Part shown: one piece after another, positions 9,014-13,531 of the stretch
Position numbering within the stretch: position 1 is the first letter of the stretch
Layout: every line of letters begins with the position of its first letter
Assembly (NCBI GenBank): GCA_022828125.1
Contig: JAJEJD010000020.1
Location: forward strand, 496,001 to 560,000
From: a bacterium
GTDB lineage: Bacteria > UBA8248
Length of the DNA: 64,000 nt
Direction of reading: 5' to 3'
Program-made: the position numbers and the translations under genes
Notes under the pieces: model-generated
The model's database searches: none
What the model was told of the DNA's origin: nothing
The model's input: only the letters and a program-made list of their open reading frames with translations

Positions 9014-9089
9014 GGGGGTGTAGCTCAGATGGGAGAGCGCGTGGATCGCACCCACGAGGTCAGGGGTTCGAATCCCCTCACCTCCACCA
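9014..9089 (+). tRNA. tRNA-Ala(CGC)
   Basis: This is a full 76-base cloverleaf: acceptor GGGGGTG with CACCTCC, D arm GCTC/GAGC, anticodon arm CGTGG/CCACG with loop ATCGCAC, a five-base variable loop, T arm AGGGG/CCCCT with TTCGAAT, discriminator A and an encoded CCA. The anticodon CGC reads GCG (alanine), and the G3-U70 pair that marks alanine tRNAs is present. Confidence 0.97.
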
Positions 9090-9111: not shown

Positions 9112-9957
9112 CTACGCATTGAGCATGGCGAGAGCCGCTTCTCGGGTTCTCATGCCTTCTCGCACTCCACGCTTTTCCGCTACTTCATTCATGCATGAAA
9201 TCACGCCGTCTTCCCATGTGCTCATCACATCGCCAATGCGCGCGCTCATGGCGCCGACTGCCGCCACCGCAATCCCCTCTCGCGCCAGATAGAAGAAAGA
9301 CGCGATACCAGAATCATCTTTTCCCCGTCCGGCATCATTTGCAATAACACCTCTAAGATTAAGCTTAATGACATGGGGGACGAGAGTGAGCCCGCAATGT
9401 GATGCTTGGATAAAAACATCTTGGGGCCTTGGTTCCTTGATAGAACGCAGGACGGGAATTCCCCATGAAGCGCGTATATTACCATTCGGAAATTGCTCTA
9501 GTTCATAAATTCTATCATCGAGACTTTCCTCGACAATTACTTTCCGGCCCATCTCGGCATCGAGCAAATGATTCGAAGCTTCAGCAATGGACTGGCCGAT
9601 TTCAACACCAAGACTTCGAGCTGCTTGATTTGCATGACCGACTTCGCCTTCATACACGGATTCTCCCACGGCGAGTCTCGCGGACATGGTTTCACACGCT
9701 AACGCAGGCACATGATATTCCTGAGCCAAAGATAAGCCGCTGATCCCCGCATCATCCTTCCCGACTCCTGCTGCATGGGCAATGATTGCTCTCGCCCCCA
9801 AGCGCATTGCCCAAGCAATCGTCATTCGTGCGGCATAGGAACCGCTAACGAGAACGTCCCTTTCCCCAACCCTTTCGTCAAAATACGTCATCGAATCCGC
9901 TGAGAGGATACGTCCCTGCGTGTCTTCATGGTGAATCGTCTGTTCGTCCGTAGCCAT
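9112..9957 (-). CDS. Uncharacterised protein of two similar halves (GKDD repeat)
   Basis: I do not recognise this protein of about 281 residues. It is an internal duplication: residues about 35-130 and 181-278 align, sharing GxGKDD(A/S)GI (about 66-72 and 212-218), MSAR(L/I) (about 91-95 and 237-241) and a following E(G/D)xV. The doubled Gly-Lys-Asp-Asp and Met-Ser-Ala-Arg motifs suggest two equivalent ligand or metal sites, or a pseudo-dimer with one site between halves. There is no signal peptide or membrane segment. ATG at 9957 is preferred over the GTG one codon upstream. The ribosome site is weak. It is the last gene of the leftward group, downstream of the 55-codon gene and its terminator. 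Confidence 0.75.
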   Translation of the reverse strand: MATDEQTIHHEDTQGRILSADSMTYFDERVGERDVLVSGSYAARMTIAWAMRLGARAIIAHAAGVGKDDAGISGLSLAQEYHVPALACETMSARLAVGESVYEGEVGHANQAARSLGVEIGQSIAEASNHLLDAEMGRKVIVEESLDDRIYELEQFPNGNIRASWGIPVLRSIKEPRPQDVFIQASHCGLTLVPHVIKLNLRGVIANDAGRGKDDSGIASFFYLAREGIAVAAVGAMSARIGDVMSTWEDGVISCMNEVAEKRGVREGMRTREAALAMLNA

Positions 9958-10020
9958 CACATTTTCTTTCCCGATTCATGAAGCAAAACACGTATACTGC
10001 AAAAAATTCAGGACAAAAGA

Positions 10021-10585: not shown

Positions 10586-11251
10586 CTAGGCCATGTCTTT
10601 TGCTTGGAATTCGATGCGTCCTCCCGGCGGTTCCACCACAAGGTGAAGCGCCTCGGCCAATCTCCCGGAAAGATGCCACATGCCACAAATAAAAGTGAGT
10701 TCCACGATCTGCCGATTGGAAAAATATTTCTTCATCTCATTGAATGCGAAGTCGTTATTCTTCGCCCTGAATTTCGATACTTCATCCGCCCATCGAATGA
10801 CGGCTTTTTCCTTATCGTCGAACAAGAGGCTGTCTTTCCAGTCATCGCCTTCCAACAGATTGATTTGATCCTGGGTAAGACCCAGAGCTCGACCGAGCTC
10901 CACATTGTGCCCGATTCAGTTGTTGCACTCTGTCAATATGGCCGTTTTAACGATAACGAGTTCCATGAGTCGAATGTAATCGGACTCCGTCTTCAATCGA
11001 TTCGTGCGGAGCTTTTGATCCAGCAACATCCATCCCTCTACTGTGGGGGGGGAATTTCCCAAAAGCTGCAAAAATCGTGGGACAGTGCCCCACATCCGCT
11101 TCGACCAATCATAAAGCGGAGCGAGTTCCTCCTTCAGTTCGTCAGGAATGTTTTCTGGATCAACAAAAGGCAGTCTTGGCAAAGGACACGCCATCATCTC
11201 TTCGGTCACGCCCAAACTATCCGGTAAACTAGTTCCTTCGTCCACAGACAT
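10586..11251 (-). CDS. AhpD-like (carboxymuconolactone decarboxylase family) selenoprotein, CxxU
   Basis: The frame from ATG 11251 to TAG 10586 is continuous for 222 codons apart from one in-frame TGA at 10918-10916 (codon 112). Before it the protein reads as an AhpD-like N-terminus ending KTAILTECNN. After it, in the same frame, comes IGHNVELGRALGLT. This family has CxxC-x-x-H here, so the TGA replaces the second redox cysteine, giving C109-N-N-U112. A SECIS-like hairpin follows at the right distance. The predicted role is thiol/selenol peroxide or disulfide chemistry. The ribosome site AAGGAG is good, and the gene follows the molybdenum hydroxylase by 30 bases, so they are probably co-transcribed. 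The alternative is a TGC-to-TGA nonsense mutation; the intact downstream half argues against that. Confidence 0.72.
10885..10918 (-). promoter_or_regulatory. Candidate bacterial SECIS hairpin after in-frame TGA
   Basis: On the mRNA, the UGA (10918-10916) is followed after 15 bases by GAGCUC-GGUC-GAGCUC: a perfect six-pair stem with a GGUC apical loop. The loop begins 22 bases after the UGA, inside the usual 16-37 base range for bacterial SECIS elements, and GGUC is the apical loop found in the E. coli fdhF SECIS, where the leading G and U contact SelB. The lower stem is poor. Confidence 0.62.
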
Positions 11252-11281
11252 TGGGTTCTCCTTGAAAATGGGATGGGTAAT

Positions 11282-13531
11282 TTATGCGCTGTTCGTAGCC
11301 AGAGCCTCTCGAATATGATGCGGGCCAACAGGCAACGAGAAAACAGGAATCCCCACAGCGTCTTGTATGGCATTCACAATCGCCGCCGCAGTCGCCACAA
11401 TGGGTGGTTCACCCACACCCCGCATCCCATAGGGTGTGCCCTCAGCCGGGTTATCATACAAAACGGCTTTCAGTTCAGGCATATCCATGCTGGTAGGTAT
11501 CAAATATTCATGGAAGGTATCGCCATGCAGGTTTCCGTCAGGACGTCTGGGCTGCTCCTCCATGAGGGCCAATCCAAGCCCCTGGAGCATGGCGCCTTCA
11601 ATTTGACCAACCACGGACAACGGATTGATGGCAAATCCCACATCCTGCACGCATGTAAGGCGTAATACCCTGATCTCGCCAAGTTCCGGGTTCACGGCCA
11701 CATCCGCTATCTGGCCGGTATGTATCGGACATGGAGGCGGCTTTGCGCTTTCACCTTGTCCAATCAAAAATCCCTGAATTTCAGGCGCCGCCTTGGCCAC
11801 CTGCGCAAGTGTCAGAGCTCGATCAGGCGCTGAAGCCACCTTGACTTGGCCATCTTCCAATACCAGATCGTCTGCAGCGGCTTCGAGTTTTATACTCGCC
11901 ACATTCAAAATTTTACTTCGCAAATCACGCGCGGCACTCAAGGTAGCCATTCCCACCGCACGCGTCGCCTTGCTTCCCGATGCTGCCGATGATTCAGGAA
12001 CGGAATCCGTATCTCCGTTCGTATAACGCACCTCATCTAAACTTACGCCCAATTCCTCTGCGGCGAGTTGGCATATGGAAGTACTCATGCCAGTAAGATT
12101 CACCGTTCCTGCTACCACTTGTACCGTACCGTCTTGGTTTAGACGAACCGTGCAACTAGACGCCTCTCCAGGCCCCGGCCAATATCCGCAAGCAATTCCG
12201 CGACCAAGTTTCCATCCATCTCCCTCGAGTTCTCCGTTAGCCTCAATCTTCTTACCCCATTTTCCTTCCACGGCCGTTGAGTCGAGCACGCTACGCATGG
12301 ACGGATCCTCCTCCCTCCCGGCCAGTGTTTCATCTCCGGGCCGAAGGGAGTTAATTCGCCTAATTTCGAGTGGGTCAATCCCCATCTCACGCGCGATGAT
12401 ATCCATTTGCACTTCAGTGGCAAAGTGGTACTGGGGGCCGCTTGGAGCGCGCACGGGACCACAAACAGGACCATTGGTATACACCGTGCATGCGCGAATC
12501 CTGACGTTGGGAATACGATATGAGCATGAACCCATAAGCATCTTGCTACTGCATTGGAACGGCGCGCCACGGCCATAGGCTCCATGATCCATCGTGACAT
12601 CGAGCTCGCGAGCGACAAACGTACCGTCATTCTTCACCGCTGTGCGTATCGTGATGAAATGAGGGTGCCTCGGATTCACACCGATGTGATCTTCCTCGCG
12701 GGTCATCTCCATGCGAACAGCCTGATCAGTCTTCAAAGCCAAAAAAGCGGCGATATGCTCATAAGTGCTCTTCAGCTTTGCGCCAAAACCTCCCCCGATT
12801 TCAGTAGGAATAACACGGACATGTGTTGCCGGAAGTCCGAGTGCCTCGGCTACATCTGCGCGAATTGCCCAAGCATCCTGCGTGGTTGTCCAGATTGTGA
12901 CCTTCCCGTCGGTACCAGCCTCGGCAGTGCATGCATGGGGTTCAATATAACCGGCATGTACGAAGGGCGTGGAAAAGGTATGTTCAAAAACACGATCCGC
13001 CTCTTTGAGCCCATCGTCGACATCTCCAATTTCTTTTTCAAAACGGGCGATGATGTTTTTGTCCGCATTCGGACCCAGCCCTAAATCTCGCCAATCTTCA
13101 TGAACAGCAAGACCTTTGCCGGCACGACTATCCAAGCCGTTCACTACCGGCTCAAGAACTTCATATTCCACGCGAATCAATTCGAGAGCTTCCTGGGCGG
13201 AATCCATATCTTCGGCGGCCACGGCAGCCACCGGTTCACCGCCATAGCGAACGAAACCATCCTGCGCAAACCAACTCTGATCCTTGATGTTGGCGCCGAA
13301 TCGTATGCGGGGAGCTTCGTCTCGCGTCACGACTGCACGGACGCCGGGTATCTTGCGCGCTTTGGCGACATCCACGCTCAGCACTTTTGCATACGGATGC
13401 GGACTGCCCAAGACAAGACCGATGAGCGAGCGGCTCGACGGGACGTCAGCCGCATACTTGGCGCTTCCAGCTACTTTGTCCGGGGCATCGATTCGGGTAA
13501 GGCCCATACCTGCTACTTTATAGTCTGTCAT
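11282..13531 (-). CDS. Molybdenum hydroxylase large subunit (xanthine dehydrogenase/aldehyde oxidase family)
   Basis: This 749-residue molybdopterin-binding subunit covers both the N-terminal a/b hammerhead domain (about 15-125) and the Mo-binding domains. Landmarks are GGGFGAK in the first Mo domain (about 246-252), GPVRAPSGPQ (about 350-359) in the Mo-cofactor loop, and GVGEPP near the C-terminus with the catalytic glutamate. It hydroxylates an aldehyde or aromatic heterocycle using water; the substrate is unknown. The FeS and FAD subunits it would normally need are not next to it. The site GAGGTG precedes the ATG. It is the first gene of a likely two-gene operon with the AhpD-like selenoprotein. 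Confidence 0.9.
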   Translation of the reverse strand: MTDYKVAGMGLTRIDAPDKVAGSAKYAADVPSSRSLIGLVLGSPHPYAKVLSVDVAKARKIPGVRAVVTRDEAPRIRFGANIKDQSWFAQDGFVRYGGEPVAAVAAEDMDSAQEALELIRVEYEVLEPVVNGLDSRAGKGLAVHEDWRDLGLGPNADKNIIARFEKEIGDVDDGLKEADRVFEHTFSTPFVHAGYIEPHACTAEAGTDGKVTIWTTTQDAWAIRADVAEALGLPATHVRVIPTEIGGGFGAKLKSTYEHIAAFLALKTDQAVRMEMTREEDHIGVNPRHPHFITIRTAVKNDGTFVARELDVTMDHGAYGRGAPFQCSSKMLMGSCSYRIPNVRIRACTVYTNGPVCGPVRAPSGPQYHFATEVQMDIIAREMGIDPLEIRRINSLRPGDETLAGREEDPSMRSVLDSTAVEGKWGKKIEANGELEGDGWKLGRGIACGYWPGPGEASSCTVRLNQDGTVQVVAGTVNLTGMSTSICQLAAEELGVSLDEVRYTNGDTDSVPESSAASGSKATRAVGMATLSAARDLRSKILNVASIKLEAAADDLVLEDGQVKVASAPDRALTLAQVAKAAPEIQGFLIGQGESAKPPPCPIHTGQIADVAVNPELGEIRVLRLTCVQDVGFAINPLSVVGQIEGAMLQGLGLALMEEQPRRPDGNLHGDTFHEYLIPTSMDMPELKAVLYDNPAEGTPYGMRGVGEPPIVATAAAIVNAIQDAVGIPVFSLPVGPHHIREALATNSA

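What the first reader, a model, noticed from the sequence alone, without database searches (positions are those of the whole stretch)
10586..11251. AhpD-like gene with in-frame TGA: a probable CxxU selenoprotein
The reading frame from 11251 to 10586 is intact on both sides of one TGA at codon 112. The sequence reads C-N-N-(TGA)-I-G-H-N where AhpD/CMD proteins have CxxC followed by H, so the TGA sits exactly at the second redox cysteine. Fifteen bases later comes a perfect six-pair hairpin with a GGUC loop at bacterial SECIS distance. AhpD/CMD-type selenoproteins have been described from marine metagenomes; this one is linked to a molybdenum hydroxylase. Standard gene callers split it in two.
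Basis: partly seen in the sequence, partly recalled or inferred. Interest (0 to 1): 0.9.

Follow-up and report, generated by a model that had tools for sequence, protein, structure and literature searches.

The report
Phylum-wide family of AhpD-like selenoproteins
The gene that looks broken by a stop codon almost certainly encodes a working enzyme carrying selenocysteine, and it is one of about ten related selenium genes in this uncultured bacterium, conserved in every genome held of its phylum.

Summary
The genome holds tRNA-Sec, selA, selB and a selD that is itself UGA-interrupted. All 16 public relatives keep TGA at codon 112, with no other disruption. Purifying selection is equal on both sides of the TGA. 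The hairpin fits the published bacterial SECIS model and covaries across relatives. The Gly codon in its loop is GGT in 99 of 118 genes, against 9% for other Gly. Homologues outside the clade have Cys in this column.

The larger finding is a radiation. This genome has 9 core CMD paralogues with CxxU plus three more divergent ones. All 18 held genomes of the phylum carry them, 121 of 124 matches with a TGA. Only 4 of 128 genomes outside the phylum give a comparable match.

AhpD-like/CMD CxxU selenoproteins have been known since 2005, so the kind is not new. New here are the lineage-specific expansion, the CxxUxxHN active site (His at +3, as in debrominase Bmp8), and conserved pairing with a molybdenum hydroxylase. 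Substrate unknown; I favour a selenol/thiol redox enzyme.

The parts
10586..11251 (-). CMD/AhpD-like gene, 221 residues, Sec-112 read from TGA, stop TAG
   Evidence: PF02627; AlphaFold pLDDT 85.8; AhpD-fold PDB matches
10916..10918 (-). in-frame TGA, Sec codon 112, second residue of the CxxU motif
   Evidence: invariant in 16/16 orthologues and close paralogues
10885..10900 (-). bacterial SECIS hairpin: 6-bp stem GAGCUC/GAGCUC with GGUC loop (loop 10891-10894)
   Evidence: covariation; meets the published bSECIS constraints
10925..10927 (-). Cys-109, first residue of CxxU (predicted resolving partner)
10907..10909 (-). His-115, +3 from Sec; invariant with Asn-116 in the clade
11258..11263 (-). 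Shine-Dalgarno-like AAGGAG before the ATG
11282..13531 (-). molybdenum hydroxylase large (MoCo-binding) subunit, directly upstream of the selenoprotein gene in all nine orthologous loci

Best explanation
A functional selenoprotein gene. UGA at codon 112 is decoded as selenocysteine by SelB and tRNA-Sec, directed by the hairpin that starts 15 nt downstream. The product is an all-helical AhpD/CMD-fold redox enzyme whose active site is Cys109-x-x-Sec112-x-x-His115-Asn116. Shown by sequence: intact frame, conservation, selection, SECIS covariation, complete machinery and fold prediction. Inferred: Sec is inserted; the selenolate of Sec112, helped by His115, attacks the substrate; Cys109 resolves it as a selenenylsulfide that cellular thiols then reduce. 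The gene is one of a set of paralogues duplicated while already Sec-coding, spread over different catabolic gene neighbourhoods. This copy is tied to a molybdenum hydroxylase and probably works in the same pathway, on a peroxide, electrophilic or halogenated intermediate. The substrate is unknown.
For: Frame and TGA. tRNA-Sec, selB, selA and selD in the genome; ARAGORN calls tRNA-Sec, anticodon TCA; selD reads MVKAGG(TGA)GSK. All 16 relatives have TGA in the same column; 121 of 124 homologues across 18 of 18 genomes of the phylum contain a TGA; selB in 15/18 and tRNA-Sec in 16/18, the gaps mostly in incomplete MAGs. dN 0.016-0.040 against dS 0.43-0.80, alike before and after the TGA. Stem covariation: 49 double-change cells against 18.4 in shuffles, 0/500 reach it; innermost pair C-G in 53, U-A in 41 of 97. 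GGT at the loop Gly 99/118 against 9.0% of other Gly, Fisher p about 6e-70. Cys at this column in outside homologues. TGA also ends other genes here, e.g. L075 and L076, so it is not a genome-wide sense codon.
Against: No protein or RNA data. Hairpin energy alone is not better than shuffles (z -0.89). Chemistry and substrate are inferred; His spacing differs from AhpD, so hydroperoxidase activity cannot be assumed. The Pfam CMD score is marginal (23.1 against 23). Sequences in the pair and codon counts are related, so those p-values overstate independence.
Confidence: 0.95

Rival explanations
1. A pseudogene or sequencing error: the TGA is a real premature stop.
For: A stop codon is present, and ORF callers split the gene.
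Against: Same TGA in 16 of 16 relatives from independent MAGs; purifying selection after the TGA; no other lesions; Sec machinery present.
Confidence: 0.01
2. TGA is read as an ordinary amino acid (Cys or Trp) through a changed code or suppressor tRNA rather than as Sec.
For: The column is Cys in outside homologues.
Against: TGA ends other genes in this genome; a tRNA-Sec with anticodon TCA and selA/B/D are present; a covarying SECIS follows the TGA.
Confidence: 0.02
3. Functional sub-hypothesis: the selenoprotein acts as a general AhpD-type alkylhydroperoxidase or thiol adaptor in antioxidant defence.
For: AhpD fold; Glu97-Cys109 spacing of 12 equals Glu118-Cys130 in M. tuberculosis AhpD and Glu36-Cys48 in PA0269; NCBIfam neighbours are peroxidase-related.
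Against: His at +3 from Sec, not +4 as in AhpD and PA0269; the Glu is Gln in the L073 paralogue group; no ahpC seen beside the gene; about ten paralogues in catabolic neighbourhoods suggest different substrates.
Confidence: 0.4
4. Functional sub-hypothesis: it is a selenium-dependent reductive dehalogenase, a CMD-fold counterpart of deiodinase.
For: Bmp8 debrominase is among the closest solved folds and has the same C-x-x-C-x-x-H spacing, CMYCKSH, aligned to CxxUxxH.
Against: Only about 15% identity to Bmp8; the mutant crystallised is C82A, which if it is the first Cys of CMYC corresponds to our Cys109 and not the Sec position; no halogen-linked genes seen nearby; groundwater members also carry it.
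Confidence: 0.12

Closest known systems
AhpD-like 1/2 and CMD-domain CxxU selenoproteins (PMC1088965; PMC2398784; review PMC13188914)
   Same: CMD/AhpD domain, Sec at the second position of CxxU, bacterial SECIS directly downstream
   Different: Those papers describe genes from metagenome reads; here a multi-paralogue set is fixed across one phylum, with motif CxxUxxHN and a Mo-hydroxylase partner. Whether these exact sequences were among theirs could not be checked.
NCBIfam NF053654 YciW-related (seleno)protein, NF041238, TIGR01926
   Same: best-scoring curated families, partly selenoproteins
   Different: Scores for the window protein are far below cut-off (43.8 of 310; 29.8 of 81.8), so no curated model claims it
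AhpD-like proteins PA0269 (2o4d/2ijc), Atu0492 (2gmy), D. radiodurans AhpD (6k40)
   Same: fold and CxxC helix hairpin; Glu at -12 from the first Cys (PA0269)
   Different: Cys instead of Sec; His at +4 (PA0269, Atu0492)
Debrominase Bmp8 (6ohi, 6ohj)
   Same: CMD fold and CxxCxxH spacing
   Different: Cys, about 15% identity; lacks the Glu

Membership tests
Bacterial SECIS-dependent selenoprotein | in-frame UGA conserved in relatives at a position that is Cys in homologues | tested here: met
Bacterial SECIS-dependent selenoprotein | SECIS: loop 3-9 nt, stem 4-16 bp, G in first two loop positions, 16-37 nt from UGA, MFE at most -7.5 | tested here: met
   loop 4, stem 6, GG, 21 nt, -13.1 kcal/mol; covariation
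Bacterial SECIS-dependent selenoprotein | selA, selB, selD and tRNA-Sec in the genome | tested here: met
Bacterial SECIS-dependent selenoprotein | Sec shown chemically in the protein | not testable with these tools
   needs mass spectrometry or Se labelling
CMD/AhpD family (PF02627) | Pfam gathering score | tested here: met
   23.1 bits against 23, marginal
CMD/AhpD family (PF02627) | all-helical AhpD fold with redox pair in the helix hairpin | tested here: met
AhpD proper (hydroperoxidase) | proton relay Glu, Cys, Cys, His with His at +4 from the second Cys | tested here: not met
   Glu97 is at the right spacing, but His is at +3 and Asn at +4
AhpD proper (hydroperoxidase) | ahpC partner and peroxide reduction | not tested
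   no ahpC seen beside the gene; activity needs an assay
NF053654 YciW-related (seleno)protein | curated cut-off 310 bits | tested here: not met
   43.8 bits
TIGR01926 peroxidase-related enzyme | curated cut-off 81.8 bits | tested here: not met
   29.8 bits
Bmp8-type debrominase | CxxCxxH active-site spacing in CMD fold | tested here: met
   with Sec in place of the second Cys
Bmp8-type debrominase | reductive debromination activity | not testable with these tools
   needs enzyme assay

The most novel reading that the evidence does not exclude
One phylum of uncultured, partly sponge-associated bacteria has evolved a radiation of selenium-dependent CMD-fold enzymes with the Bmp8-like CxxUxxH site, each paralogue being a reductive dehalogenase or comparable electrophile-reducing selenoenzyme for a different natural product, this one coupled to a molybdenum hydroxylase.
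Probability: 0.12. Interest if true: 0.85.

Novelty: new member of a known kind. Interest (0 to 1): 0.52.

Why it matters
Selenocysteine is costly and usually used sparingly. A family kept at about ten copies in well-assembled genomes, with Sec in almost every core copy, across every held genome of a phylum, implies strong and repeated selection for selenium chemistry. The set gives about 120 natural SECIS variants with compensatory changes. It also offers a concrete Sec system whose substrates can be sought through linked genes. Standard ORF calling splits these genes, so the trait is easily hidden in public genomes.

Tried and rejected
Hairpin energy as sole evidence: not significant. A changed genetic code: rejected because TGA also ends other genes and the Sec machinery is present. 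Other UGA read-through candidates in the window by codon-position GC: none looked convincing. The search for related loci genome scan returned relatives only from Nitrospinota/Tectomicrobia-type MAGs, so outside relatives came from the genome search and the plasmid collection. TAL-effector rows are short chance resemblances with no stretch passing on its own. A Bmp8 paper was sought in the library and not found. The Olavius selenoproteome paper is not held. The whole genome was not available as a file; I took only the stretches needed, so total selenoproteome size was not counted. L083 (103-codon frame, CQPU) is kept only as a weak candidate. In the tree the two SxxC rows of G015 were overwritten by the CxxU domain of the same frame, so their placement there is not meaningful.

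Full report
OBSERVATION. The minus-strand frame 11251-10586 is open apart from one TGA at 10916-10918, codon 112. It reads C109-N-N-U112-I-G-H115-N116. A GAGCUC-GGUC-GAGCUC hairpin occupies 10900-10885, with its stem 15 nt and its loop 21 nt past the UGA. The ATG at 11251 follows AAGGAG. A mechanical ORF caller splits the gene.

MACHINERY. The window lies in a 3.92-Mb, 97% complete MAG. It holds tRNA-Sec (75.9 bits, over the Rfam cut-off; anticodon TCA by ARAGORN), selA and selB close together on one contig, and selD. selD itself has one TGA, in MVKAGG(U)GSK, which is the known Sec/Cys site of SelD (site from established knowledge).

CONSERVATION. A scan of public genomes found 16 relatives, most labelled Nitrospinota or Candidatus Tectomicrobia. 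Nine are orthologues of this gene and seven belong to the closest paralogue group. All 16 have TGA in the same column and no other lesion. Against five close relatives dN is 0.016-0.040 and dS 0.43-0.80, with the same pattern before and after the TGA. The downstream half is therefore translated in frame.

SECIS. The published bacterial model asks for a 3-9 nt loop, a 4-16 bp stem, G in the first two loop positions, 16-37 nt spacing and MFE at or below -7.5 kcal/mol (PMC13188914). This hairpin has 4 nt, 6 bp, GG, 21 nt and -13.1 kcal/mol. Energy alone does not beat shuffles (z -0.89), so comparison is the real evidence. In 97 distinct sequences the innermost stem pair is C-G in 53 and U-A in 41. 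On 47 representatives, 49 cells are changed on both sides against 18.4 in shuffles (0 of 500 reach it), and sliding the 3' partner lowers the paired cells from 82.6% to 60.3% or less. The Gly codon in the loop is GGT in 99 of 118 genes against 9.0% for other Gly in the same genes; the other conserved Gly, at +12, is GGT in only 20 of 119. These sequences are related, so p-values overstate independence, but the effect is very large.

A RADIATION. The genome has nine core CMD genes with CxxU and three more divergent ones: L081 (CNYU), L082 (apparently a two-domain protein, CDYU) and L083 (CQPU, weak). L082 is conserved with its single TGA in 11 of 11 genomes that have it, and its own SECIS region folds at z -3.80. 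In the phylum, 18 of 18 held genomes carry the family; 121 of 124 matches contain a TGA, up to 15 matches per genome. selB is found in 15/18 and tRNA-Sec in 16/18; only one genome, 67% complete, lacks both. Among 121 distinct loci, 119 have Sec in the column; two of these have Ser in place of the first Cys (SDYU, L099 and L101), and two SxxC domains in genome G015 lie in a tandem or fused arrangement. The tree shows paralogue groups spanning genera, so duplications of already Sec-coding genes predate the genera. Outside the phylum, 4 of 128 genomes match at E 1e-20; one strong match (G102) is also CxxU, and others are Sec or lack the pair.

FOLD AND ACTIVE SITE. AlphaFold gives pLDDT 85.8 and pTM 0.81. 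The best solved matches are Atu0492, PA0269, D. radiodurans AhpD and debrominase Bmp8. Glu97 lies 12 before Cys109, the same spacing as Glu118-Cys130 in AhpD and Glu36-Cys48 in PA0269 (PMC3141380). The His, however, is at +3 from Sec with Asn at +4, whereas AhpD and PA0269 have His at +4. Among the structures whose alignments I could read, only Bmp8 shares the +3 spacing, CMYCKSH. That Bmp8 works like thyroid deiodinase is from memory and not tested. The crystallised Bmp8 mutant is C82A, probably equivalent to our Cys109, so the dehalogenase analogy is suggestive only.

CONTEXT. In all nine orthologous loci a molybdenum hydroxylase large subunit lies directly upstream, even in genera where other neighbours differ. 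Other paralogues sit near ABC or Tct transporter genes, an amidohydrolase, nitroreductase, aldehyde:ferredoxin oxidoreductase and, for L082, a second Mo hydroxylase with its FAD subunit. This suits substrate-specific enzymes more than one general antioxidant (inference).

MECHANISM. UGA decoded by SelB and tRNA-Sec at the hairpin (strongly supported, not observed); Sec112 selenolate as attacking group and Cys109 as resolving thiol (inferred; the Ser-for-Cys109 variants keep Sec, which fits Sec being the essential residue); substrate unknown.

NOVELTY. CxxU AhpD-like/CMD selenoproteins are a known kind. No curated NCBIfam model claims this protein (43.8 of 310 bits). Of the top-ranked papers found on these lineages none mentions selenoproteins, but that search is not exhaustive. 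I file it as a new member of a known kind, with an unusual phylum-wide expansion as the interesting part.

Noticed in passing
L030 (own genome C30:4116-5078, minus): selD is itself UGA-interrupted, reading MVKAGG(U)GSK, so selenophosphate synthetase is also a selenoprotein.
   Followed up: yes
L215 (own genome C23:112715-113497): yqeB, a maturation gene of selenium-dependent molybdenum hydroxylases, is present (363 bits, over cut-off); the organism may also use labile selenium in Mo enzymes.
   Followed up: partly
L099, L101: Two CMD genes keep the Sec but have Ser instead of the first Cys (SDYU); these may work without a resolving Cys.
   Followed up: partly
L173, L196 (genome G015): SxxC CMD domains lie next to CxxU domains, apparently tandem or fused arrangements with a degenerate second domain.
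   Followed up: partly
L082 5295-6092: A longer, apparently two-CMD-domain selenoprotein beside an FAD subunit and a second Mo hydroxylase, with an unusually stable SECIS region (-26.2 kcal/mol, z -3.80).
   Followed up: yes
window 11282-13531: The Mo hydroxylase large subunit stands without FeS or FAD subunits beside it, so its electron partner is unclear.
   Followed up: no
window 9014-9089: tRNA-Ala with anticodon CGC between the class II ribonucleotide reductase gene and the ORF 9112-9960.
   Followed up: no
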